Part shown: one piece after another, positions 1,228 to 51,113 of the stretch | Layout of the letters: each line of letters opens with the position of its first letter | Numbering within the stretch: the first letter of the stretch is position 1 | Source: Cladophialophora immunda | Lineage: Eukaryota > Ascomycota > Eurotiomycetes > Chaetothyriales > Herpotrichiellaceae | NCBI RefSeq assembly: GCF_000835495.1 | Contig: NW_015622545.1 | Coordinates: 1,814,777 to 1,878,776 of the forward strand | DNA length: 64,000 nucleotides | Direction of reading: 5' to 3' | Notes under the pieces: generated by a model | The model's input: the letters and a program-made list of their open reading frames with translations, nothing else | Told to the model about the DNA's origin: nothing | The model's database searches: none | Made by a program: the position numbers and the translations under genes

Positions 1228-2691
1228 TCAATGACCGTTGAGACTTGCCTTGCCTCCATTTTCATGCGACACCGGTCCCGGCTCGAGGAAGGGCGAGTTC
1301 TCCTTGACGCCCTTGGGCTTCTGGAACCGCTTCCGGAGCCCGAGCCACGTGCGGGCGTTGTAGTCGAGTTGCCTCTTGCTCGACTTGGACCAGGCCCAGT
1401 CACTCATGCCCAAGATCATGTTCGACTCCAGCACGAAGGCCATGCTCCCCTCGCCAACCTTCTGCGGGACCAGGTCCATCTCCGAGGCGCGCGCGTGCGT
1501 CTCGCTGTCGGGCCCGTGGCCGACCATCACGTTGTGCAGGCTGGCGCCCCCGGGGCGGAACCCGCCGTCGGTGCGAGCGTCGTACTCGCCCTGGATGAGG
1601 CCCATGAACTCGGCCATCGTGTTACGGTGGTACCACGGGGGCCGGAACGTGTTCTCCATGACGAGCCAGCGCGGCGGGAAGATAGCCAGTTCCACCACGC
1701 CCTCGGACGAGGCGAGCAGGGTGAAGATCGACGGGTCCGGGTGGTCATACGAGATGCTCCCCACGGTCATGAAGCGGCCCAGGTCGTACTTGTAGGGGAA
1801 ATACGTCCCGTGCCAGGCCACCACGTCGAAGGGCGAATGGTCCTGCTTGGCCTCGAAGAGTTGGCCGTTGAATTTGGCCACCACGCGGTAGTCAGTGTCG
1901 GCGTCGTCCTCGTACGCCGCGATGGGGATCTGGAAGTCCCGGGCATTCGCGCAGCCAAATGATCCCAGCGGCCCGAGGTTGGGCAGCGTGAACACCCCCT
2001 GGTGCAGTTCGAGCGCGTAGCCCCGGACAGGCCCTTCGGGCAGGGAAACGTGGTACTTGATCCCGCGCGGAATGACACAGATCTCCAGCGGCCGCACAAG
2101 GAGACGGCCCAGCTCGGTCTTGATGTCGAGGACGCCGGTCTGCAGGATGATCAACAGCTCGCCGTCCGCTGAGGAGAAGGCAGTCTTGGGATCCATCGAC
2201 TGGCCCGCTGTGAAGATGAAGTAGCCCATGCCCGACTTGGCCGACACGTCGCCGGCGGCACAGAGCAGGCGCATGGAATGCACCCAGTCTGCTTTCTCGT
2301 CCATGTCGAACGGATCCCAGCGCACCTGGGTCGGCACGTGCACTAGATTCTGATACGCATTGTAGTTGGTGGCCACCTCGCTGTCCGGCAGGGGCTCGGG
2401 TTCGAATGGCTCATGAGCCGCAGAGGGGACAATGCGATACAGCCAGGTCTGTTGGTTCTCCGGCCGCGCCGCCTGGAAAGCACTGCCCGAGATCTTTTCG
2501 GTGTACAGGCCAAAGGCTGGACGTTGGGGTGTGTTCTGGCCAATGGGCAGAGCACCCTCGATGGCTTCAGATCTATCAAGGTTGGTTATATGGATGGGCA
2601 CCGACGTCTTTACGAACACTCACTCCTGATACGATCCAAACCCCGTGTTGTACCTGTACTTCTCAGAAGTCTTGAATTTCGAGAATGGCAT
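1228..2691 (-). CDS. hmgA: Homogentisate 1,2-dioxygenase (two exons)
   Basis: Cleaves the homogentisate ring to maleylacetoacetate in phenylalanine/tyrosine degradation, in the cytosol. Exon 1 is 2691-2624 (starts MPFSKFKTSEKYRYNTGFGS); a 51-nt intron (GTGAGT...TAG) separates it from exon 2, 2572-1228. The product is 470 aa, slightly longer than the usual ~445. The family landmarks are in order: the NTGFGS start, GALPIGQNTPQRPAFGLY, and the iron site with His338 (WYHRN), Glu344 (EFMGL) and His375 (HGPD). The C-terminal ~25 residues are a non-conserved tail. The longer uninterrupted frame that begins at 2619 runs into the intron and is not the true start. It is divergent from fumarylacetoacetase, the last enzyme of the same pathway, across a 472-bp shared promoter. 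Confidence 0.96.
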
Positions 2692-3163
2692 GCTGTTTGT
2701 TCAACGGTGGTTGATGTCCTGTTTGTTGTGAACCCACTTCTACTCGCCCTGAGCCCTTGGTTGAGAGGGGCGTCTATAATACGTGAACGAGGGGCCGATA
2801 CTGAATCTTCGGCACTTCGGCTCTAGAGACACGAGCATCTGGCCAAAGCATCTCCTTCGCCTCATGCCCATGACCGCCTCCGAGACATCAACCAGTCCAG
2901 CTCGGAAATTTCCGAGCACCGCCGAGCACCTCCGCGCAGCCTCCGAGCACCTCATTCAGCCTTTGTCCTGTTTTACTTGACACCTACTGAATCCCTCGAT
3001 CCAGATGACGGGTCAAGCTTATGCGTCTTTGGGCAATGAACGAAAGCAGGCAAAGGGCCTGAGTAGTAAGTTGGATTACCAACACCATTCTGCTCTCCGT
3101 CTCAACTCTTGAACAACAAGAGAACCATTCACTAAGATATCACAGTAAAAAGCAGCCAGCGCG
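2692..3163. promoter_or_regulatory. Divergent hmgA-fahA promoter with palindrome
   Basis: The 472-bp region between the two start codons should carry both promoters. It contains an 18-bp perfect palindrome at 2900-2917 with a CGG-N6-CCG core, the classical half-site arrangement for dimeric Zn2Cys6 regulators. Three copies of CCGAGCACC follow at 2912, 2922 and 2943. In Aspergillus the tyrosine cluster is controlled by a Zn2Cys6 protein (HmgR). That this palindrome is the binding site of a counterpart is inference. Confidence 0.6.
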
Positions 3164-4492
3164 ATGGCGCCAATGTCATGGCTAGACGTTGCGTCGGACT
3201 CTCTGTTCTCCCTGGCCAATATTCCATTCGGCGTGGGCGTCTTTCCTGGGCATGACAAGCCGTCCGTAGCGATCGCTGTTGGCGAATATGCGATGAACCT
3301 GGCTGTATTTGCCTCCAGTGGCGGATTCTCTCAGCTTGCAGATGTTCAAGGCCATGCTGAGGTCTTTGATCAACCAACCCTCAATGCTCTTGCAACCTTG
3401 GGGCGACGCTTTGCGGGGGCTGTGCGCCGCTTTTTGCAAGATATCCTGAAAGAGCCGACGTCATATCCTGACGTACTCAAGGACGACAAAGATTTGCAGT
3501 CTCGATGCCTTGCGCGGTTGACGGAGGTGGAAATGCGTCTCCCTTTCAACATTGGCGATTTCAGCGACTTTTACGGGGGCATGAACCACGCGTATAATGC
3601 CGGGGCACTGTTTCGGGGTCAGAATGGAGCACTGCTACCCAACTACCTGCATCTTCCCATGGCCTACCACGGAAGATCGTCTTCGATATACGTGTCCGGG
3701 ACACCCGTGCGAAGGCCATGGGGACAGATTGTGGAAGATCTGAGCGCAACCGAGAAGCATCCAATCTTCGTTCCCTGCCGGACCATGGACTTCGAACTTG
3801 AGCTAGGGTGTTTTGTCTGTGGGGGCAACGAGCCATTCGACAACATCTCCATCGAGAACGCCGAAGACAACATATTTGGATTCGTTCTCCTGAACGACTG
3901 GTCCGCGCGCGACGTGCAACGATGGGAATATGTGCCCCTGGGGCCCTTCAACGGCAAGAACTTCGCGACCACCATCAGCGCCTGGGTCGTGCTGGCAGAC
4001 GCGTTGGAACCATTCCGGAGTCCTGGGATGGTTCATCCCGGCCCGCTTCTTCCGTATCTCCAGGAGCGCCGCAAGGACTTCACATACGACCTCAAGCTGG
4101 AGATCCAGCTGCGCAGCGGCCGCACCAAGCACCTCTCGACCATCTGCTCCACCAACGCCAGGGACGGGCTGGTCTGGTCCTTTCCGCAGATGCTGGCACA
4201 CCATACCATCACGGGCTGCAACATCAGGGCGGGCGACCTGCTCGGGTCCGGGACGATTAGCGGAGAGAGCATATCTTCTCTGGGCTGCTTGTTGGAACAG
4301 ACTCTCAACGGAAAGCGGCCGATCCAGTTGGAAGGGGGGGAGCAGCGAACATGGCTGGAAGACGGAGACGAGGTGATTTTGAAGGCTCGGGCTGGCGATG
4401 AACAACGCGGGTTCGTGGGATTTGGGGATGCCGCAGGGGTGTTACTCCCAGCACATGAGCAGACAGCCAAAGCTGGACTCAGTGAACTGTAG
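3164..4492 (+). CDS. fahA: Fumarylacetoacetase
   Basis: Hydrolyses fumarylacetoacetate to fumarate and acetoacetate, the last step of tyrosine degradation. It is a single exon of 442 aa, close to the usual ~420-430. The N-terminal SH3-like part spans about residues 1-120. The catalytic domain has DFSDFYGGMNHAYNAG with Asp135 (metal) and His142 (general base), then Glu211 and Glu213 (ELEL) and Asp245 (LLNDW), matching the known Ca2+ ligand set. The YHGRSSSI and GPFNGKNFATT segments are also typical. ATG 3164 is the first in the frame; an ATG three codons later is an alternative. It pairs divergently with hmgA. The maleylacetoacetate isomerase that normally links them is not in the window. Confidence 0.96.
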   Translation: MAPMSWLDVASDSLFSLANIPFGVGVFPGHDKPSVAIAVGEYAMNLAVFASSGGFSQLADVQGHAEVFDQPTLNALATLGRRFAGAVRRFLQDILKEPTSYPDVLKDDKDLQSRCLARLTEVEMRLPFNIGDFSDFYGGMNHAYNAGALFRGQNGALLPNYLHLPMAYHGRSSSIYVSGTPVRRPWGQIVEDLSATEKHPIFVPCRTMDFELELGCFVCGGNEPFDNISIENAEDNIFGFVLLNDWSARDVQRWEYVPLGPFNGKNFATTISAWVVLADALEPFRSPGMVHPGPLLPYLQERRKDFTYDLKLEIQLRSGRTKHLSTICSTNARDGLVWSFPQMLAHHTITGCNIRAGDLLGSGTISGESISSLGCLLEQTLNGKRPIQLEGGEQRTWLEDGDEVILKARAGDEQRGFVGFGDAAGVLLPAHEQTAKAGLSEL

Positions 4493-10062: not shown

Positions 10063-12062
10063 ATGGATCCGAATTCGAGATTGTGCGAGCTTTGTCAAAG
10101 AGTTTCCTTCGATAGCTTGCGGTCGGAACATAGCTTCCAGCATCATGAGAAAGCCACCTTCCTGCGTCGCGAGGCCACCAGGGAGAATGGATGCCAACTC
10201 TGCTCCATGATCTGGCGCGCCCTATCATTCCTGGGCAGAAACCCGTTGAGCGAAGACCCCGCCAGGCTCCTGCTGAATCCTTCGGGCAGCCCGGTGGAGA
10301 GCTGCTCCGTCTATTCCAACGAACCCAGTCCCATGTACGGGGTGAAGATCCTGTGCGGTCAAGTGGAGGTCCTGGATTCCCTGCAATGGCGGGGAGACGC
10401 CCCTCAACGATGGCACGTTTGGCCCGACGGCGACGCGAGCCAGCCCAAGCCACACACTTTTGGCGAATACGATTCGAGATTGTTCGGCATCAATGATGAG
10501 TGTGAAAACCCCCCTCCCGGGCTCACGCCGCAAGACAGTCGCCCTGACCAACGCCCAGGCGATCCCGCTGGAAGCCTCGTCCGCCACAGGGAGATTAGCT
10601 CACGACCAGATTCGGATGAGGCGTACAGCCTCATCAACCAGTTGATCAACCTTTGTCGCTCGACGCATCGAACATGCCCCAATACAGGTGAAAACGTCTT
10701 GCCGTCCCGAATCATCGATGTCGAGCCGGCGGATGGCTCTCAGGAACCTCACTCATTGACCTAGAGACAAGAAGAGGACAGGCCTCCTTCTGGAAACCCT
10801 GAGCCTTCTGCCCTGCGTCGAGGAACGTACCTTGCTCTAAGCTACTGTTGGGGAGAGGTGCCCGCCATCGTCACGACCCGTGACAATCTGGAGGAAAGAA
10901 AAAGGGGCATTCCGTTTGCCGATTTTCCCCCTACAATGCAAGACGCCATTGCCATCGCAAGAAGGCTGGGAGTGAGATATCTGTGGGTGGATGCACTGTG
11001 TATCTTGCAGGGGACCGACGAAGCAAAGTTGGATTGGCAAAGGGAGTCACCAAGGATGAGAGACGTCTACGGCAATGCCTTTCTAACAATCGTCGCCGCA
11101 CCAGCGAGAACAATCCACGGTGGGATATTCGCCGCCGGGAATCCCCCGAAAATACCCCACTGCCGCATCCCGTACAAGTCGAAATGTACGCCGGGAATCG
11201 AGGGCCACGTCTTCCTGGGCTTCGCCGAGAGACCTCGCGACAGATCAGAGGAGCCACTGTACCATCGAGCATGGACGCTTCAGGAGCGCATCCTCTCCTC
11301 GCGCGCCCTGATCTGCACGCGAGATCAACTTTGCTGGGAATGCGCCGGGGCCAAGTGGACCGAAAGCGGCGAGTTCAACCCGCCGATCAGTTCCGCGAGA
11401 CTGGAAGCGCAGCCGAACCAAGGCAACACCTGGAACGTGATTGTTCGAGACTACAGCTCCAGAGACCTGACGTACAGCATGGACAAGCTCCCCCGCACTG
11501 TCCGGGCTCGTGAATGAGATCTCCCAGCGGACCGGAGACGAGTACCTTGCGGGGCTCTAGAAAACCCACATATGCGACCATCTGGTCTGGTGCCATCGGC
11601 ACATGGTGGTCGGGAAGAGGACGAGGCGGGCGTGGCCTCGGTGGTACAGAGCACCCTCATGGTCGTGGGCTTCAGTGGACGGCAATATCTTCTTCCCCAG
11701 CCATACCGAAAGACAGCGACGTGTATTACTTGAAGCTCCTCGACCACCAGATCATCCCCGCCGGAATTGACCAGTTCGGCGCCATCGCGTCAGGCTATAT
11801 ATCCGTGCGAGCTCCTCTGAAGCGCTTCTCTCGGATCTATTTCCGGAGCTCCCAAGTATTGGAGACGATGGAAGACGGAGGCCACACGCGGGACGTTGTT
11901 GTCGGCAGCGTCTGGCTGGACATGTTGGACGGCGATGTCGAGGGCAAGTACACCGATGATTTATTGGCGAACGCGCTGCTCGCAGATCCGTGGGCGTTGC
12001 GGTTGAAGGAAAGGGTGGGATTGGTACTGACTCCTACCAACGTGGCGAAGGAAGGAGTATAG
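10063..12062 (+). pseudogene. Decayed HET-domain (heterokaryon incompatibility) gene
   Basis: HET proteins trigger cell death in non-self recognition. The family landmarks are present but split over three frames: CELCQRVSF and a Cys-rich start; IDVEPADGSQEPH; TYLALSYCWGE; LGVRYLWVDALCILQ; MRDVYGNAFLTIVA; HRAWTLQERILSSR; RAPSWSWASVDG (in another frame near 11657-11692); and SGYISVRAPLKRFS (a third frame near 11790). Lesions: TAG at 10762-10764, with the likely ancestral reading LIDLETRRG in the +1 frame; an extra base in the C run at 11490-11494; TAG at 11558-11560 in place of a Trp codon; and another frame change around 11700-11715. At least four independent breaks argue for a dead gene, although homopolymer errors could explain one of them. 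No intron repairs the frame convincingly. Confidence 0.85.
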
Positions 12063-15656: not shown

Positions 15657-17572
15657 TCATGACCCATCAGCTTCGGGACTCAAGGCCCTCACCAGTCGCT
15701 GCAGTTCATCAACCTGCTCCTTCAGCTGTCTTATCTCGACGACATCGGCGTCGACCTCGACCACAGGCCGTGAGGACTGGACCTTTTTGTCCCACCCCTC
15801 GGACTCGAAATTCAATTCGCCGGCCATTTCCTCCCATTCCTCGATTGTGTCATCATCTTCTTCTCCCCGACTCCTGTTACTTCGTACCGTGCGCGCATCC
15901 ATAGACTCCAAACCAGCTGTGATCAGCAAGAGAGGCGAGTAGATGACGCCCATGACATAGTTATTCAATCGTTCATAGCGATAAGGGTCCATCCACCATT
16001 CGAATGGGATGATCAAGAAGATCAACTCAATCAAATTGAAAGGCGCGATGAAGACGTTTTCGTCGGGGGCACGCACGAACTGTAATGTCTTTTGCGCAAA
16101 CATAGCCATGTACTCATCGATCGCGTTCTCCGTGATATCTTCGTATGCACTGTTGTATAATGCGATCAGGATGTTGAGCAGGATCACCATCACGACGAAC
16201 GTGAATATGTAATATAGTATCAGGCCAAAGGGGTGAGCATAGTTATCAAAGCCTTCGAAGTCGGGTGACTGCATGACGGAATTGGCCATGGCGGTGATGA
16301 TGAAGCTGGTGATACTGCTATTTCCCTCGACTTGGTTAAGGCCGATGAAAGCTTGCAGAAACCCCACGCAGACAACCAAGAGAAGGGCAAAGAAGATGAG
16401 GGATTCGCGCATCATGACTTTCAACACAACCAGCATTGCGCCAAAGAAGCGGAATGTGTCCAGATACAGGAGGAGACGGCCCCAGAACATTGGAGCGGCA
16501 ACACAGAATATGTGATAACCCAGTCTGTTGAGTTGGCGGCGCTTGTCGTCATTCTCGTCGGGGGAGTGGCCGAGAGCGGTCATGCGGATAATGAAGGAAG
16601 CCGTAAGCAGGGCGTAGAGGCAGTTGTTGAAGGCGTTCCAGAAGCCAAAGTACCAAATGCCGACTTTCCAAAATTTACCGATTTCGTCACAGATGAAGCC
16701 TAGAGTCATCACATAGAGAATGCCCTCGACGACATCGAGGTCACCGTCTTCGTTCACAGTATTGACCGCTCCGGTGTACAGAGCTAGATAGAGAACAGAT
16801 ATCGTGATTTGGAGGGCGTTCTGATACAAGGGAGTGCGCATGCGGTCGGGGTTGAGATGGACCCAGTAATTTGTGTTGTCGCGGTCTTTGTAGAAAACAA
16901 ACCTGCCGGGGTCTTTGTCATCCTGGTGAATCCAGCCTCTCCAAAGGTACTTGATGCATTTCTGGTAGCCAGACGAGCCAATGACGATCAGGCAGTGCAG
17001 GTCGACCGCTCTCTCAATGACATTTGCTGGGGCTGTCTCCTCTTCTTTGCGGATGACCGAGTAGCGCTTGAGAAGAATCTCTTGCATCAAGTACTCCTGG
17101 TCATCCTCAGCCTCGATGATGCGTTTGGCGATCATCTCGCAGGCCACTGCACGGACATGGTGTAAGTCTGCATCCCAGAGCTCCAGGTTGGCTTGTCTGG
17201 TGAACCATCTCTTGCACACAAGCAAGCAATACACCACGCATGCCGCATTGTCACTCCCGCCGGCCTCTTTGGCAGTCTGCACCACCTTCTGAGTGATGAC
17301 AGGGCTGTTGGCAGCGACGATTTTCTCTTCAGGGAGCTCGATAGGAATGACTTCCTCGATCTGATACTTCAACCGGAGGGCGACTTTGGTGACTTCTTTC
17401 GGCGGCAGGGCAGATGGCGGGAGGTCGCTGCTGTGAGTGGGAAGCACTGCTCAGAATTAATATGCATTTATGCCACAGGGTAGAAGTCTAGCTTACATCT
17501 CCGTGTCTCACCGTGGTGATGTGGTGAATCCCTTTCACGAGCTCCGAAGAGAAGCGTCCCCCATTTGACCAT
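15657..17572 (-). CDS. YVC1: Yvc1/TRPY-type vacuolar cation channel
   Basis: Ca2+-permeable TRP channel, in yeast located in the vacuolar membrane and releasing calcium on osmotic shock. Exon 1 is 17572-17512 (MVKWGTLLFGARERDSPHHH), then a 65-nt GT-AG intron, then exon 2, 17446-15657; 616 aa in total (yeast 675). The N-terminal ~210 residues are cytosolic and include VYCLLVCKRWFTRQA. Six hydrophobic segments follow (for example ALQITISVLYLALY, IFCVAAPMFWGRLLLYLDTF, SLIFFALLLVVCVGFLQAF). The pore region reads SVMQSPDFEGFDNYAHPFG before the last helix, FTFVVMVILLNILIALYNSAY. After the channel come a conserved ENVFIAPFNLIELIF, an acidic stretch (GEEDDDTIEEWEEM) and a C-terminal coiled coil (EIRQLKEQVDELQRLVRAL). 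Confidence 0.93.
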
Positions 17573-37044: not shown

Positions 37045-39264
37045 TCAAATTTCCGTTCGCGGCCTGTCGACATTGAATAGGCCAAAGACTCCAGAGGCGT
37101 CGAGCTCTGCCGTCTTTCGAATTGGATTTATGCCGTAACCACCGTCGCCATCTTTAACAAACTTTCCGCCTCGTGGAATGATGATTTCATACGTCATCAC
37201 AATCCCTCTGATCTCGAACTGTACCTGATACTCCAGGTACTTGTATTCTCTCTCTCTTACCGGTGAGGTCCTCGTCTCAAAGAACCTACAGTCGTCCTCC
37301 GTGAGATACACTTTGAGCATTCCACAGGGATGGATGCTGCTGTGGCGTGGATGGTCGATCCAAAGTCCATCCTCTGAGATATCATCAGAGTAGAAAATCT
37401 GTTCTTCCAGAACCCACCCGGTTTCGGTCTTCTCATCCAGGAACAAGCCACGCCAGCAGCCTTCCGGCCCAAACGCCTGATGGTGGTGTCCAATTCGTTC
37501 CCCTATTCGGATCAAAAAGCTGGTGACGTCGATGCGACTGTAATAGCCGTCGTGCGGATCGCGTAGTACTTTGACCAATGGATTCTTTCGATCGCCTGGA
37601 AGGCTCTCTTCGTCGATCTTAACGCAATATCCACGTCTAATGACCCTTTCCGTCACGAAACAGCTGTCCATTCTAAGCAAAACCGCCCCTTGAGAGATGC
37701 AGGTCGCAGCGCCCATTCCGTCTTTGTCCGTCTCACGAACAGTGATGGGATACGGTGTTGCTTCATTTTTGGGACGGCAATAACGATTCCGGAGCTTGGC
37801 TTTTAGGAATGGAGATGAACTGCCACCCCCGACAAGGAGAATCTCCGAGATCCGCGCTCCAGAACCATCGCGAGAGAGTGGATGCCTGGTGTGGAATTTT
37901 TCGATCATTTTGTCTATCATGCATGTGATAGGGGTGATCGAAGAGTCGAAGGCATTGGTAACGTCCTCTGCTGATAGGTCCAGGGTATTCCTTCGAAGTC
38001 CGATTACGGGGATCTCTGGCAAGCCCGGAATGTTCAACGACAAAGTTTCGCCTGGGGACCACCACCGCTTTTTGTTCTCGAAGAGAGCCTCTATTTCGTT
38101 CAGGAACTGATTCTCGTCCATCGATCTGCCATGAGCCCTTAGAGCGTCCAGGATACGCGGCATCATAGGCTGGCACCTTTCTCTGACGATGGCACGGCAT
38201 GTCTCGTTGACGCGATTACCTCCGCACCATTCGTCGGCGCCTTCAACTTCCTCTCTGACCACGAGAGGGCTTAGCTGAGCAGATGAGTACGCTTGGCAGT
38301 CCACCGAGCCGCCGCCGACGTCCACCGCTATCGTACACCCACTCTTGTCAAGAGGTCCATGGGCATCAGTCCTCCTCTGGATGTCGAACGCATAGGCTGC
38401 GGCAGGCTCCGCGACAGGCTGGGGTCTGGGGATCTTCGCTCGAACAGCGGCACGAATCGCCAGCTCGACGTGATGCGGCTTACTATCTGCCGGCATGGGC
38501 AAGACTGTTTCCACCGCCGTGTACTCGCACGGATCAAAGTGTCGGTATGCTTCCACATCGGATGGGTCTGGCCACGGAAGCTCGGGGTATTGTCCCTTTA
38601 TTTTGCGTAGAATATACCTCCAGGCATGACCCATAAAGTCAGAGAAGATATCAAGAAACGTCAATCGTCGAGTGTCCCCAGGTCGTAACTCGTCAGAAGC
38701 GGAGAACTGAATGGCTTGAGGTAGCTTGTCGATTTGATGCTCGATTCGCTGTTGAGCAGCGCGTCGTGTACCCTCGGTGTAGATCGCTGGCTTGAGCCAT
38801 CGAAAGACGAAATCCGAATTAATGCGGCCTTCGTCAAGAGCAATTGTGACCTCCTTGCCCCAAAGCTGCCGGTATACAAGCTCTCCCGTGACCTGGTCTT
38901 CCCACCATTCATATCCGATCTGGGTTTCGATGAACTGAAGTTGATTAGGCCAAACGATAATTCTAATTCCTGGCAGGATGTTGCCATCGACGCCGACCTT
39001 TGGATTGATCTTCTCACGGCTTTCCACAACCTTGAATGCGCTCTTCATGTAGGCAGTTCCCGCGTCGATCGCTATTATCACCTTATTGATACCACAAGGA
39101 TTTCTAGGACAAAGGTCACCGACGGAGTTTATCGGTGGTGCTTGGGTCAAGGTGTTCCCCCCTCGACCCTGCCCATTGCCGGTTCTTTTCTGTACTTTGT
39201 GGGTGGATCGTGTCGTCGGAGAGTCCGTGAGGACGCAAGGAGTCCTCCTCCTAACGCAAGCCAT
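37045..39264 (-). CDS. Hsp70-like (HSPA12-type) actin-fold ATPase
   Basis: 739 aa, single open frame. The nucleotide-binding fold of the Hsp70/actin superfamily is visible: phosphate-1 loop VIIAIDAGTAYMKSAF (about residues 61-76), phosphate-2 loop TIAVDVGGGSVDCQAY, and adenosine motif EILLVGGGSSSPFLKAKL. There is no canonical Hsp70 substrate-binding domain or C-terminal EEVD. The C-terminal ~200 residues are unfamiliar and beta-rich (EYKYLEYQVQFEIRGIVMTYEI). This matches the divergent HSPA12-like proteins abundant in fungi, whose functions are mostly unknown. The first ~55 residues are basic and unconserved, so a first exon could have been missed. It sits at the edge of the region that carries the NLR pair. 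Confidence 0.85.
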   Translation of the reverse strand: MACVRRRTPCVLTDSPTTRSTHKVQKRTGNGQGRGGNTLTQAPPINSVGDLCPRNPCGINKVIIAIDAGTAYMKSAFKVVESREKINPKVGVDGNILPGIRIIVWPNQLQFIETQIGYEWWEDQVTGELVYRQLWGKEVTIALDEGRINSDFVFRWLKPAIYTEGTRRAAQQRIEHQIDKLPQAIQFSASDELRPGDTRRLTFLDIFSDFMGHAWRYILRKIKGQYPELPWPDPSDVEAYRHFDPCEYTAVETVLPMPADSKPHHVELAIRAAVRAKIPRPQPVAEPAAAYAFDIQRRTDAHGPLDKSGCTIAVDVGGGSVDCQAYSSAQLSPLVVREEVEGADEWCGGNRVNETCRAIVRERCQPMMPRILDALRAHGRSMDENQFLNEIEALFENKKRWWSPGETLSLNIPGLPEIPVIGLRRNTLDLSAEDVTNAFDSSITPITCMIDKMIEKFHTRHPLSRDGSGARISEILLVGGGSSSPFLKAKLRNRYCRPKNEATPYPITVRETDKDGMGAATCISQGAVLLRMDSCFVTERVIRRGYCVKIDEESLPGDRKNPLVKVLRDPHDGYYSRIDVTSFLIRIGERIGHHHQAFGPEGCWRGLFLDEKTETGWVLEEQIFYSDDISEDGLWIDHPRHSSIHPCGMLKVYLTEDDCRFFETRTSPVREREYKYLEYQVQFEIRGIVMTYEIIIPRGGKFVKDGDGGYGINPIRKTAELDASGVFGLFNVDRPRTEI

Positions 39265-39874
39265 GCATTTGGGCTTCTTGGGATTCTTTTCAAGAGAGCA
39301 TGGTTTCTGCGACCGACGTTAAACGAGAAGATCTCCTTGGGCACGCCAACGGTAAACTCACGTTGCGAATTCTGCACTCTGAACATGCGACCATCGTGGG
39401 ATCAGGCTTGTAGTGGGCGAAGTGTTGTAGGAGCTGGAACTCAGGGTATTGTAATAGCGGTGTGAGGGTGTATTACTTGGGCAGGAGACAAGTCTTCGCG
39501 GAGGGAGTTGTCATGGGGATATGATATTTTAAAATCAGGCCACCTGCTCCTAGATTCACCAGGTGGGCATCTGGAAACCCTGAGAAGCGCTCAGACGGTC
39601 AGCTGCTACGTCCAGGGGGAGAATGATAGGCCCTCCTTCGACATTATCACTCACACCCATGCAATGTTTCAGGAAATGATTGGTGGCGTCAAGCCTCTGA
39701 GCATAACGGGACTAGCTTGTGACGGTGTGACGAATTGTCGCCCCAATCTCAGCCAGATTGGGTCGAAGGCTGGGAATGCTCAAGAATAACTAATATATCA
39801 GGGAAGTCTCTGGGCCGAATTCTCGCGTTGTAAGAAAAAGTCGAATTCTTGCTCGCCAGATCACTCCGCAAAGC
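39265..39874. promoter_or_regulatory. Divergent intergenic region, Hsp70-like gene and unknown gene
   Basis: A 610-bp spacer between two divergent start codons, presumed to hold both promoters. No specific element recognised. Confidence 0.45.
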
Positions 39875-46549: not shown

Positions 46550-47776
46550 TCAGAAATTGATCGGTCCTCCTCCTGAATTGAACGTGTTAGCAACGAAGCT
46601 CTTCCCACTTCCCGTCATAGAGGTCCCAGAGATCGTGTTGCACTGGTGAAACCCGCCTCCGCTTGGGTAGGAATGATGTTCTGTTCCCCCGGTGCTTGTG
46701 CCTGGCTGTCCCTTGTTATCCTGTTCGTTCACTACCCACCGGCTTAGAAATGCCTTCATACAAGCCGCAGCAGTCGCCGCTGCATACCTCTGCCACCTCT
46801 TGTTCTTATGGCTGTCTGCATAGTCACAGACTCCTTTGATCACCACCGTCGGGAAATGTTCCCACACTCCAGCTCCTTCCATCTCGAACCCAATCACGCC
46901 CTCCTTCTCCGCAATTGTGTCTCGGTGGTAGCCTGACTTCATCACTTGGTCTCCTGACGCGATACGCCCGAAATGGATAACCGGCTGTGGTGCATCAGCA
47001 GCATCTATAGGGTTACTTTGCGACTGGACTACCTCTATGCGAGCACGTTGAACCCGCCTTCTCTCGTCGCACCCTAGCTCCGTGCAAGATGCCTCGAGCG
47101 CAGCCGGACAGACCGGATCATCCTTACTATCGGATTTGGCGCAAACGGTACAGAAGGCTGGATTTTGATGCTTATGGATATAGGTCGATTCGTAGAGTTT
47201 GTCTTCCTCGGATCCGGGATATTTCGATTGCTCGAACCCCTCCTTACTGCATAACTCTGCCAGATAGACGCTTGTCTTCTCTCTCAGCCACTTCCGACCT
47301 GGAGCCCCTTGTAGCTTGTTAAGAAACGAGCGGATCTCCAGGTTCGGCCGGCCCAGTTTGTCCTCCAGTGTGTCCTTTGGGATCACTCGATCAGGATATT
47401 GGCGTCCAAAATCATGCTGCACAAGGCCAGTACTCATGATTACGTCGCCGAGGATGATCTCTCCATGCTTCGTTCTTGGGACGCCGCCACAGACTCCTAC
47501 CACCAGACCCAGCTTGATCCCCGAAAAGCTGGAACAGATGCCAGCTGCCACAAAGGCCGCATCAGCTTTGCCCATGCCGGGCATATGCGCCAGCACCACA
47601 TTATGATTACCGACTCGTCCCCTCGTGTAGGCATTTGGATCACCAGCGGCCTTCCTGAAAGACTGGTCGTCTTCCCAGACCTCGTCGAATAACGCTTGGA
47701 CGGCGTCCGACTCGATGGGCGAGGCACAGATGACTGTAATCTCGAACTCGCTACGATCTCGGGGTCGTTCGGCCAT
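46550..47776 (-). CDS. PNP/UDP-phosphorylase-domain protein with C-terminal amyloid-like motif
   Basis: 408 aa from ATG 47776 (MAERPRDRSEFEITVICASP). The frame is open further upstream but without an ATG. Residues ~10-340 form the purine-nucleoside-phosphorylase-like domain often used as the N-terminal effector domain of fungal NLRs: MPGMGKADAAFVAAGICSSF, LVVGVCGGVP, EIILGDVIMS, FGRIASGDQVMKSG, VIGFEMEGAGVW, and VIKGVCDYADSHKNKRWQRY. Here it stands alone with no NACHT domain. A flexible Gly/Ser/Thr tail leads to the last 20 residues, GSGKSFVANTFNSGGGPINF, which match the N-terminus of the divergent NLR at 13 of 20 positions. By analogy with HET-S and HELLP, an effector carries its amyloid motif at the C-terminus and its NLR partner at the N-terminus. 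Nucleoside cleavage or cell-death activity is inferred only. Confidence 0.88.
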   Translation of the reverse strand: MAERPRDRSEFEITVICASPIESDAVQALFDEVWEDDQSFRKAAGDPNAYTRGRVGNHNVVLAHMPGMGKADAAFVAAGICSSFSGIKLGLVVGVCGGVPRTKHGEIILGDVIMSTGLVQHDFGRQYPDRVIPKDTLEDKLGRPNLEIRSFLNKLQGAPGRKWLREKTSVYLAELCSKEGFEQSKYPGSEEDKLYESTYIHKHQNPAFCTVCAKSDSKDDPVCPAALEASCTELGCDERRRVQRARIEVVQSQSNPIDAADAPQPVIHFGRIASGDQVMKSGYHRDTIAEKEGVIGFEMEGAGVWEHFPTVVIKGVCDYADSHKNKRWQRYAAATAAACMKAFLSRWVVNEQDNKGQPGTSTGGTEHHSYPSGGGFHQCNTISGTSMTGSGKSFVANTFNSGGGPINF

Positions 47777-48187
47777 CTGGCATTTCGGAGTCTCCACACA
47801 GTTGCGGAGGATGGTGTGCTTTTCCAACTACTCCCACGTCTGATCGTCCCGAGCCGGGACCTAAAATGTTTAAATGTTGACGTTACACCTTTAGCTCTTC
47901 CAACGATTCATCGATCCAACGTCCTGCTAACAAGCAAAATCATGGAACTTTAGAACTCTCTATACATCACAACGATATGGCTACTAACATACAGCATTGA
48001 GATGTGAGGTCTGGCGCAGAGCGGGGTAACCACGTGCGCGAACCCCACTCCAGCTGAACTTGCGCAGGCAACAGCTACTAGAGCACATTCAAGGCTTCAT
48101 CGGCTGCGGCGGGCATGTTGATCCCCAAACTGACAACACTCGTTAAGTTTCTGTGAAAATCTCCCTGTGATCTAATCTGCTGATACA
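47777..48187. promoter_or_regulatory. Bidirectional promoter of the PNP protein/NLR pair
   Basis: Only 411 bp separate the two divergent start codons, so the effector-like and receptor genes probably share regulation. No specific element recognised. Confidence 0.5.
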
Positions 48188-51113
48188 ATGCAGGCGTCGG
48201 CTAGTCACCAGGAGAATGTCCTCCAGAGCACCACCAACAGTGGAAGTGGCAACTTGTTCGCCGCGAACTCCTTTAACACTGGCGGTGGATCCATTACCTT
48301 TGGTACGGACTCGCGAGGCGCATAGCCATCCTTGCCGCTATATGGTCCGCTTTGGCTAACTAGGCGCGTGTAGTGACAGGCCATGAGCGGAAGGAACTCG
48401 AGGACCGGTGCCTTCGCGGACTATTTCAAACGAATCCCCTTGACGACTTGAGGAGCATTCAGAAGGCCAAAAGCAAGCTCGAAGGGACGTGCGAGTGGCT
48501 CCTTCTCCGGGAAGAATACAAAAACTGGGTGAGCGGCGACGGACCCTGGCTTCTCCAGCTGGAAGGTGCTCCAGGTATCGGAAAAACTGTGCTAGCAACT
48601 TTCCTTGTCAACGAGTTAACCAGGCGGGCTGAAACAACTCCCGACATGACGTTTGCGTATTTCTTCTGTGACAACAAACATGAAGCCCGAAAGACTGCGA
48701 CATCGATTCTCCGGGGGCTGATTTGGCAACTACTGAGGCGACACGAAGATCTATTCGAGCACATTTTATTGGATTTCAAGTCCCAAAAGGATCGTCTTTT
48801 CGAGAACTTTGAAGCCCTCTGGCGAATCCTATCAAACATGTTACGTGATCCGAAGTCTGGCCATGTGTTCCTCCTCATTGACGCCCTCGACGAGTGCGAA
48901 GAAAAGTCGCGAGAGGGGCTGATTGACAGTCTCGAATTATTGGCAAACGAGGCGTCCGACGACTGCAAGGTTCTCATAATATCCCGACCTGGGCATGACA
49001 AGAGAAACAAATTGGACGAGATTTCGACATGCATCCGCGTGGACACTGGGAAAATCAATCAAGATCTTTCCAACTTCATTTCATCCAGAGTTGAGGATAT
49101 CTCTCGGCGGAAAAATTGGCTTCCTACTTTAAAAGAAGACGTCCAAATGGTTCTTAATGAAAAAGCTCAGGGAACGTTTCTTTGGGTTTCCCTCGTCGTT
49201 AAAGATCTTGAACGAACAAAGAAGCACGAGGTCCGACAAAAGCTGGAAGCGCTCCCCACCGGCCTCAACGAAATGTACGACAGAATCTTGTCCGGGATTG
49301 GGTCCAAGCAAGCTCAGGATGCCCTGTTCGTGTTACAGTGCATTATAGCCGCAAGACGCCCTCTGACCACAAGCGAACTTGCTACGGCCTTTATATTGGG
49401 AGCCCGCGAATCAAAAGCAAACGAACTGCCTTCAGAAGACAAGGTGGACGAGTTCCGCGAAATTCACACCATTTGTGGGGATATCGTCTATCTCGATGTA
49501 GATAATAAGACTGTCAATCTCATTCACCAATCAGCAAAGGACTATCTTCTGACAGACAAAAGCAAACCAAGGGAAACACAAAGGCAATATGCGGTCGTTC
49601 ATGACTCTGCCAATTGCCTCCTATTTCGGGTTTGCTGGGCATACCTAAGCATGAAAGAATTTGATCACGGAAACGAGATTATTGGTCGAGATTCAGATAA
49701 TGAACTTTATCCACAATTCTTTGCGAAAGATATGAAAAAAAAATACAGTTTTCTTCAATACGCCTCCGAGGAATGGACAGAGCATGCTGTGGCAGCTTAC
49801 CCGGCTATAGTCGAGAATCTTGTGGGATTCGACTGGTCCGTTTTGGATGACACGCCAAACTTACGCGATGCCTGGTTAATCGAAGCCTCAGAAATGGGAC
49901 AAATCGAAGTAGTAGAACAACTACTTAACAAGGGCGCTGATCTTGAGTCTAAAGATGTGAGTGGCTGCACGCCGCTGTCGCTGGCCGCAGATCAGGGAAA
50001 TCAGGTGGTAGTACAGCTACTCCTCGAGAAGAGCGCTGATCTTGAGGTTAAAGAACACAGTCGCAATCAAACACCGCTAGCGCTGGCCGTAGAGAACGGA
50101 CACCAGGCGGTAGTGCAGCTACTTCTCGAGAAGGGTGCTGAGCTCGAGGCTAAGGATAATATGGGGCGGACGGCGCTATGGTTAGCCGTACAGAAAGGAC
50201 ACCAGAAAGAAGTAAGGCTACTCCTCGAGAAGGGTGCTGAGCTCGAGGCTAAGGATAGACGGGGCTGTACGGCGTTATCGTGGGCCGCACAGAATGGACA
50301 TATGGAGGTAGTAAAGCTACTCCTCGGGAAAGGTGCTGGGCTCGAGATTAAGGATATATGGGGCGGGACACCGCTATTTTTTGCCGTGGTGCGTAAACAC
50401 GAGGAAGTAGTAAGGCTACTCCTCGAGAAGGGCGCTGAGCTCGAGGCTAAGGATAATGATCGCCAGACAGCGCTATCGTTAGCCGCGAGAAACGGATACG
50501 AGGAGGTAGTAGNNNNNNNNNNNNNNNNNNNNNNNNNNNNNNNNNNNNNNNNNNNNNNNNNNNNNNNNNNNNNNNNNNNNNNNNNNNNNNNNNNNNNNNN
50601 NNNNNNNNNNNNNNNNNNNNNNNNNNNNNNNNNNNNNNNNNNNNNNNNNNNNNNNNNNNNNNNNNNNNNNNNNNNNNNNNNNNNNNNNNNNNNNNNNNNN
50701 NNNNNNNNNNNNNNNNNNNNNNNNNNNNNNNNNNNNNNNNNNNNNNNNNNNNNNNNNNNNNNNNNNNNNNNNNNNNNNNNNNNNNNNNNNNNNNNNNNNN
50801 NNNNNNNNNNNNNNNNNNNNNNNNNNNNNNNNNNNNNNNNNNNNNNNNNNNNNNNNNNNNNNNNNNNNNNNNNNNNNNNNNNNNNNNNNNNNGCCAGACA
50901 GCGCTATCGTTAGCCGCGAGAAACGGATACGAGGAGGTAGTAGAGCTACTCCTCGAGAAGGGTGCTGAGCTCGAGGCTAAGGACAGATGGGGTAGGACGG
51001 CGTTACGGTGCGCTATGACGTTTGGACATAAGGCAGTAGTAAAGCTACTCCTCGAGAAAGGTGATGTTGAGCACGAGTCTGAGGATGCAGATAGCCTGAT
51101 GGCGACATCGTGA
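48188..51113 (+). CDS. NACHT-ankyrin NLR with N-terminal amyloid-like motif (contains assembly gap)
   Basis: Exon 1 48188-48302 encodes 38 residues ending in GSGNLFAANSFNTGGGSITF (residues 19-38). After a 71-nt intron (branch GGCTAAC, acceptor TAG at 48371-48373) exon 2 starts at 48374. The NACHT domain follows: P-loop EGAPGIGKT (~102-110), Walker B LLIDALDE (~205-212), sensor-like IISRPG. From about residue 535 there are ankyrin repeats of 33 residues (consensus GxTALSLAAxNGHxEVVxLLLEKGAELEAKD), seven before and two after a 380-N gap at 50513-50892. The gap is not a multiple of three, so reading continuously gives a false stop. After it, the ankyrin frame resumes and ends at TGA 51111-51113. 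The repeat number is unknown. Role: intracellular recognition receptor; ligand unknown. Confidence 0.9.
49904..51095 (+). repeat. Ankyrin repeat array, high internal DNA identity, with gap
   Basis: 99-bp units sharing long identical stretches such as CTACTCCTCGAGAAGGGTGC. The 51 bases just before the N gap (50462-50512) are identical to the 51 just after it (50893-50943), which shows that the unresolved part is more of the same repeat. Confidence 0.9.
50513..50892. other. Assembly gap (380 N) inside the ankyrin array
   Basis: A run of N inside the coding region. The 431-bp offset between the identical flanks is not a multiple of 99, so the gap size is an estimate. Confidence 0.99.

What the first reader, a model, noticed from the sequence alone, without database searches (positions are those of the whole stretch)
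46550..51113. Divergent PNP-domain protein and NACHT-ankyrin NLR share a 20-residue terminal motif: candidate amyloid signalling pair
Seen: the PNP protein ends in GSGKSFVANTFNSGGGPINF and the NLR carries GSGNLFAANSFNTGGGSITF at residues 19-38; 13 of 20 positions are identical (GSG..F.AN.FN.GGG.I.F), with no other similarity between the proteins. The genes are divergent, 411 bp apart. Known: fungal NLRs can activate separately encoded effectors by templated amyloid folding, with the motif at the N-terminus of the NLR and the C-terminus of the effector (HET-S/NWD2, HELLP/PNT1), in adjacent genes. I recall a PNP-associated amyloid motif class in fungal NLR surveys but cannot verify its consensus. 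Inference: this is a split NLR in which a PNP effector is recruited by motif templating; PNP is usually fused to NACHT. The motif pattern differs from the HET-s HRAM repeat as I know it.
Basis: partly seen in the sequence, partly recalled or inferred. Interest (0 to 1): 0.92.

Follow-up and report, generated by a model that had tools for sequence, protein, structure and literature searches.

The report
Split fungal immune receptor and enzyme
In the black yeast relative Cladophialophora immunda a sensor gene and a neighbouring enzyme gene carry the same short tag, which most likely lets the activated sensor switch on the enzyme by prion-like folding; the arrangement is a known one, but the tag matches no published family that could be tested here.

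Summary
A 408-residue PNP-superfamily protein (46553-47776, minus strand) ends in GSGKSFVANTFNSGGGPINF; the divergent NACHT-ankyrin NLR, 411 bp away, carries GSGNLFAANSFNTGGGSITF on its own first exon. They agree at 13 of 20 positions; 5,000 shuffles reach 10 at most. A DNA pattern for AN.FN.GGG occurs twice in the 42.2 Mb genome, at these two places. The tail recurs in 11 of 120 listed PNP relatives. Over ten of these, mean pairwise identity is 70% in the enzyme, 19% in the linker, 49% in the tail. A profile of ten tails, none a C. immunda entry, scores the NLR exon above all of 20,000 shuffles. The enzyme has the MTA/SAH-nucleosidase fold with conserved catalytic positions. Best explanation: a two-component NLR-to-nucleosidase amyloid relay. 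That kind is known and partly tested (PUASM, PMC9815663). This motif fits neither the PUASM pattern nor the Pfam sigma, PP or HET-S models; the second published PNP-linked motif could not be compared. Amyloid formation is untested, and the receptor-side motif is unseen outside C. immunda.

The parts
46550..47776 (-). PNP/nucleosidase effector gene, 408 aa plus stop; read here as a single exon; MTA/SAH-nucleosidase fold over about residues 10-350, disordered linker, C-terminal motif
46553..46612 (-). effector-side 20-residue motif GSGKSFVANTFNSGGGPINF, residues 389-408 (the wider conserved tail is residues 377-408, 46553-46648)
47777..48187 (.). 411-bp divergent intergenic region between the two start codons
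48188..48302 (+). NLR exon 1: 38 codons and one base, carries the receptor-side motif
   Evidence: P0121 and P0122 begin with the same 38 residues
48242..48301 (+). receptor-side 20-residue motif GSGNLFAANSFNTGGGSITF, NLR residues 19-38
48303..48379 (+). intron 1 (GT..AG, branch-like CTAAC at 48356; acceptor at 48379 or 48373, both in frame)
   Evidence: P0121 fits the 48379 acceptor and P0122 the 48373 acceptor
48380..51113 (+). NLR exon 2: NPHP3-type/NACHT NTPase, winged-helix domain and ankyrin repeats; interrupted by N from 50513 to 50892, so the true reading across the repeats is unknown

Best explanation
A two-component NLR signalling pair. The NACHT-ankyrin receptor oligomerises on binding its ligand; its N-terminal motifs then stack into a beta-arch amyloid seed; the seed templates the same fold in the C-terminal motif of the neighbouring PNP-superfamily protein; the clustered enzyme then hydrolyses a nucleoside or nucleotide (most likely of the adenine type, perhaps ATP), causing cell death or growth arrest in non-self recognition or defence. 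Shown: the motif pair, its position, its conservation on the effector side, gene adjacency, the predicted enzyme fold and its catalytic residues. Inferred: NLR oligomerisation, amyloid templating, enzyme activation, substrate and cell death.
Against: No amyloid, seeding or activity test exists for these sequences. The receptor-side motif is seen only in two C. immunda entries, whose NLRs are identical over residues 1-126, so the strain comparison does not show that the motif itself is constrained. P0124, the NLR relative that probably neighbours P0002, starts after the position of the motif exon. One predicted C. immunda isoform (P0123) lacks the motif exon. Against full-length NLRs the tail profile scores only 11.7-12.1 bits. 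No Pfam amyloid model matches. PNP paralogs L012 (the closest) and L013 do not show a Pfam NB-ARC in the PNP frame itself, so among the three paralogs looked at fusion is certain only for L014.
Confidence: 0.75

Rival explanations
1. The motif is a known class in disguise: the second published PNP_UDP-associated motif (PF01048_015; two PNP-linked motifs are later called PUASM 1-2) or a diverged sigma-type motif. The mechanism would be the same and the novelty smaller. This rival does not exclude the best explanation.
For: PF01048_015 is associated with PNP_UDP effectors and found in four NLR/effector pairs (PMC9815663); its logo is in a supplement that could not be read. The G/S/N-rich make-up loosely resembles sigma motifs as recalled, from no call.
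Against: No match of the two window peptides or of 10 relatives' tails to any Pfam model, NACHT_sigma included; the sigma profile finds nothing at this locus. [quoted passage not shown] immunda one has the motif; the 2,546 further relatives were not listed.
Confidence: 0.25
2. The motif is a homotypic docking tag that brings PNP and NLR together without an amyloid: each copy binds the other, or both bind a third protein.
For: Only shared sequence and position are shown; nothing here measures polymerisation.
Against: A motif shared by both partners fits self-complementary templating better than a hetero-ligand; a Gly-rich turn between short hydrophobic/polar strands would fit the beta-arch class (inference); tested fungal motifs of this layout form amyloids (PMC9815663).
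Confidence: 0.15
3. The shared peptide is a chance or neutral Gly/Ser/Asn-rich linker similarity.
For: Both peptides are rich in G, S and N, and the profile match carries a 6-bit composition bias.
Against: Shuffles of the same composition do not reach the match; the tail is conserved beyond a divergent linker; the pattern occurs only in the two adjacent genes in 42.2 Mb.
Confidence: 0.03

Closest known systems
PUASM NLR/PNP_UDP pairs (Wojciechowski et al. 2022, PMC9815663)
   Same: PNP_UDP effector with the motif at the C-terminus, NACHT NLR with the motif at the N-terminus, neighbouring genes in Pezizomycotina; NLR-side motif most often at positions 20-49
   Different: Published pattern FxGxGxQxxGxGxF is not met by the NLR peptide or the PNP tails; published PUASM NLRs are NACHT or NACHT-WD40, here NACHT-ankyrin
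PF01048_015 (PMC9815663); two PNP-linked motifs are listed as PUASM 1-2 in PMC12261475
   Same: Rare second motif associated with PNP_UDP effectors next to NLRs
   Different: Cannot be said: its sequence pattern is not in the main text
HRAM3-type (NLR12) PNP_UDP effectors (PMC9815663)
   Same: Single-copy motif at the C-terminus of a PNP_UDP protein paired with an NLR
   Different: No match of the peptides to the Pfam HET-S models
HET-S/NWD2 and HELLP/PNT1 pairs
   Same: Layout: NLR N-terminal motif, effector C-terminal motif, genes close together (PMC9815663 and PMC5485727 passages)
   Different: Effectors there are HeLo or HeLo-like cell-death proteins (and a putative lipase in the PP case); here a nucleosidase-fold enzyme; no match to the Pfam models of those motifs
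Detocs PNP effector (bacterial ATP nucleosidase; PMC11249213 glossary passage)
   Same: PNP-superfamily immune effector; PADLOC 'Effector, PN-superfamily' profile matches at E 2.4e-10
   Different: Bacterial three-gene system; the substrate of the fungal enzyme is untested; the fungal proteins share conserved His and Cys positions

Membership tests
Two-component NLR/effector amyloid signalling pair | NLR gene next to a separately encoded effector gene | tested here: met
   Divergent, 411 bp apart; PF01048, NACHT, NPHP3_N and ankyrin models above cut-off
Two-component NLR/effector amyloid signalling pair | Same short motif at the NLR N-terminus and the effector C-terminus | tested here: met
Two-component NLR/effector amyloid signalling pair | Motif retained in both members of orthologous pairs | tested here: inconclusive
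   Effector side in 11 of 120 listed relatives, incl. the second C. immunda strain; receptor side in 2 of 120 listed, both C. immunda; P0124 predicted without the upstream exon
Two-component NLR/effector amyloid signalling pair | Motifs form amyloid and template each other | not testable with these tools
   Needs peptides and a foci or prion assay
PUASM (NLR32) | Conserved pattern FxGxGxQxxGxGxF | tested here: not met
   No full match in any of the 240 fetched proteins; best partial 2 of 7 fixed positions for the NLR 38-mer, 2-4 of 7 for the 11 motif tails; shuffles of 4 of these tails average 3.1
PUASM (NLR32) | Effector is PNP_UDP_1 | tested here: met
   PF01048 E 6.6e-12, 45.8 bits, cut-off 25.1
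PF01048_015 (second PNP_UDP-linked motif) | Match to the published motif profile | not tested
Sigma motif (PF17106) | Match to the NACHT_sigma model | tested here: not met
   No hit for either peptide or 10 relatives' tails at E up to 10 (fast filters on); genome scan gives two weak places elsewhere, 13.9 and 13.4 bits, cut-off 27.6
PP motif (PF17046) and HET-S/HRAM (PF17108, PF11558) | Match to the Pfam models | tested here: not met
   No hit for the peptides (fast filters on); genome scans gave one weak place each elsewhere, under cut-off, and nothing for PF11558, where no control genome rang either
MTA/SAH nucleosidase fold | Fold and catalytic residues | tested here: met
ATP nucleosidase effector (Detocs-like) | Cleaves ATP to adenine and ribose triphosphate | not testable with these tools
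   Domain-level match only

The most novel reading that the evidence does not exclude
A further PNP-linked fungal amyloid signalling motif family, about GGKxFxxxxFNSGGGx[IM]x[FL], distinct from the two published PNP-linked motifs, HRAM, sigma and PP, used by a NACHT-ankyrin NLR to switch on a nucleosidase. It sits where a fused effector would normally be, so the locus records the conversion of a one-protein receptor into a two-protein prion-type relay.
Probability: 0.5. Interest if true: 0.6.

Novelty: new variant of a known kind. Interest (0 to 1): 0.45.

Why it matters
Few amyloid signalling motif families linked to fungal NLRs have been named: HRAM, sigma, PP and two PNP-linked ones in the 2025 data set passage seen here (PMC12261475). 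Another would suggest that the relay is easily re-invented around one enzyme family, and would supply a compact pair (two 20-mers and a single-exon enzyme) for testing whether amyloid templating can activate an enzyme rather than a pore former. It also hints at how fused and split NLRs interconvert.

Tried and rejected
Chance or low-complexity similarity: rejected by shuffles that keep composition and by the genome-wide pattern search.

Recent DNA duplication of the motif: rejected, 8 of the 13 identical residues use different codons.

PUASM membership: pattern not met. Sigma, PP and HET-S models: no hits for the peptides and none over cut-off in the genome; rang in no control genome, so it says little. 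The VIA-align look spans model residues 2-351, so it says nothing about the fold of the motif.

Strain comparison as a test of constraint on the motif: not informative, because NLR residues 1-126 are all identical between the window model and P0121 and 70 changes fall in residues 127-545. In the PNP the two strains differ at 13 of 408 positions, the last two at 352 and 379; residues 380-408 are identical.

Finding neighbours in other species: the viral contig scan matched 14 stretches by pattern but none encodes a relative; the genome search holds no relatives for this genome; the N-terminal NLR search returned two C. immunda entries; the wider NLR search listed 120 of 490, and the tail profile passes threshold only in those two. 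The first structure job with 11 sequences was poor (mean pLDDT 37.3) and was not used; the second used 105 of the 120 PNP relatives plus the window protein; the 15 left out are mostly proteins over 600 aa.

Three genome paralogs of the PNP (L012-L014) show no such tail motif by eye. Of 12 further loci looked at, 7 showed the searched core word, none with this motif by eye.
Full report
Where this is. The window lies in a 42.2 Mb genome in 39 contigs. The NLR entry P0122, named Cladophialophora immunda, comes from a contig of 4,609,732 bases, the length of the window's contig C5, so I take the organism to be C. immunda. This is an inference.

The observation. The PNP gene reads from 47776 to 46550 on the minus strand (408 aa). 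The NLR starts at 48188 on the plus strand; 411 bp separate the start codons. The two 20-mers are as reported: 13 of 20 residues and 38 of 60 bases identical, 5 of the 13 shared residues on the same codon. The NLR motif sits on a first exon of 38 codons, followed by a 71- or 77-bp intron; both acceptors keep the frame, and deposited C. immunda proteins fit one each. Exon 2 encodes an NPHP3/NACHT NTPase, a winged-helix domain and ankyrin repeats. The ankyrin array is broken by 380 N, and the frames on the two sides disagree at that nominal length, so the C-terminus of this allele is unknown. The other strain's protein P0121 has 896 aa.

More than chance. Shuffling both termini 5,000 times gave at most 10 identities in any 20-residue ungapped match, against 13. 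The NLR 38-mer finds itself and the PNP tail in the genome (2 matches, E 3.3e-18 and 4.1e-4). Conversely the whole PNP protein finds the NLR exon at E 0.016. The degenerate DNA pattern for AN.FN.GGG has 2 matches in the genome, both here, and 0 for the reversed control.

Conservation of the effector motif. Of 2,666 PNP relatives with E <= 0.001, 120 were listed. All 120 tails were printed; 11 carry the motif (P0001, 2, 3, 4, 5, 7, 8, 10, 11, 13, 22). P0001 is a C. immunda entry; the other ten come from jgi, ena or lgn sources without an organism name. In ten of these eleven (P0022, a 278-aa entry, was left out of that alignment) mean pairwise identity is 70% in the enzyme core, 19% in the linker and 49% in the last 32 residues. 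A profile of ten tails (P0001 left out) scores the NLR exon at 18.9 bits; among 20,000 shuffles of that exon (19,990 reported) the best is 16.2. Run over all 240 fetched proteins the profile passes its threshold in 13: the 11 PNPs and the two C. immunda NLRs P0121 and P0122, the last two at 11.7 and 12.1 bits against their full length. This is the strongest evidence that the two ends carry one motif, since the NLR took no part in making the profile. Its limits: the ten tails match by construction, and the raw match carries a 6-bit composition bias, which the shuffles control.

Receptor side. The NLR search over residues 1-545 listed 120 of 490 relatives; only P0121 and P0122 carry the motif. 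P0124 (72% identical over 91% of the query region) comes from a contig of 381,665 bases, the contig length given for P0002, the PNP relative at 80%, so the pair is probably conserved in another fungus. P0124 was predicted without anything upstream of the exon 2 equivalent except a short unrelated start, so the receptor-side motif there is unseen. The window NLR and P0121 are identical in residues 1-126 and differ at 70 positions in residues 127-545, so they do not test constraint on the motif.

Split versus fused. In the same genome PNP paralog L014 has PNP_UDP_1 and NB-ARC (41.6 bits, cut-off 23.5) in one open frame. L012, the closest paralog (54%), has a 402-aa PNP frame followed within a dozen bases on the same strand, in another frame, by a frame with NB-ARC at 24.1 bits, just over cut-off, so it is fused by splicing or merely adjacent. 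L013's PNP frame ends in a P-loop-like stretch by eye, with no Pfam match there. Comparing the lists of 57 NACHT and 47 PNP matches by eye, four other places have a PNP and a NACHT match close together on one strand (two on C2, one each on C4 and C28); only the window pair is divergent. Some relatives of this NLR carry effector-type domains such as NACHT_N or abhydrolases in their precomputed Pfam lists (P0165, P0227, P0232). So both halves belong to families that also occur in one-protein receptors.

Mechanism. Shown: motif pair, layout, conservation, predicted fold, catalytic residues. Inferred: ligand-driven NLR oligomerisation, beta-arch amyloid formation, templating onto the PNP tail, activation by clustering, nucleotide or nucleoside hydrolysis, cell death. 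An immune PNP effector in bacteria cleaves ATP (PMC11249213 passage; PMC10197012 passage); the original paper, which I recall, was not held. In Aspergillus fumigatus hetA and hetD alleles encode PNP_UDP proteins; hetA was validated by expression and hetD was not tested (PMC11138114 passages).

Literature. PMC9815663 (outline, abstract, passages, sections 6, 19, 24, 53-55) reports two motifs associated with PNP_UDP: PUASM, with pattern FxGxGxQxxGxGxF, peptides forming ThT-positive fibrils and the effector-side motif behaving as a prion in Podospora; and PF01048_015, seen in four pairs. Its neighbour search kept proteins of 200-400 aa; this PNP has 408, so that arm would have passed over it, though the effector-based arm has no such protein-length limit in the text I read. 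The NLR 38-mer and the motif tails do not fit the PUASM pattern. Other papers were seen as passages only: PMC12258605, PMC5485727, PMC12261475, PMC8086366, PMC12881547, PMC10197012, PMC4518210, PMC11138114, PMC11249213. None of the passages I saw describes this motif. The paper searches were by subject words, not by the motif's letters, and supplements were not searched, so absence from print is not shown.

Verdict. The pair is real, and most likely a working NLR-to-enzyme amyloid relay of a known kind with a motif that fits no published class that could be tested here. Interest 0.45: the motif and the enzyme effector are of note to specialists, but the principle is published and the amyloid step is untested.

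Noticed in passing
window 10765-11514 (+): HET (heterokaryon incompatibility) domain frame, PF06985 E 1.4e-28, about 35 kb from the pair: a second candidate non-self recognition gene in the window.
   Followed up: partly
window 50513-50892: 380 N inside near-identical ankyrin repeats; the same repeat text stands on both sides, and the reading frames do not agree across it, so the repeat number is unresolved.
   Followed up: partly
P0051, P0075, P0102 C-termini: Related PNP proteins share a different sequence near their ends (about EFRGPTxVxGGxVFQGN in P0075 and P0102, similar in P0051): possibly another PNP-linked signalling motif.
   Followed up: no
P0042 C-terminus: PNP relative with NVGNQVG near its end, resembling the PP core pattern: a PNP effector possibly wired to a PP-type NLR.
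   Followed up: no
PNP residues 201-236, window about 47069-47176 (-): Two His and several Cys conserved in nearly all of 106 aligned sequences: possibly a metal site in the stretch between the two nucleosidase-like halves.
   Followed up: partly
G000:C28:4140-5851 (-): PNP and NACHT matches side by side with an in-frame TAG in the NACHT match on a 12.6 kb contig: possible decayed fused NLR.
   Followed up: no
window 1231-4489: Homogentisate 1,2-dioxygenase and fumarylacetoacetase in divergent frames: an ordinary tyrosine-degradation pair.
   Followed up: no
window 15660-17450 (-): TRPY1/YVC1-type calcium channel frame.
   Followed up: no
window 37048-39318 (-): 757-residue frame without a Pfam match at 1e-3; looks Hsp70/actin-ATPase-like by eye.
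   Followed up: no
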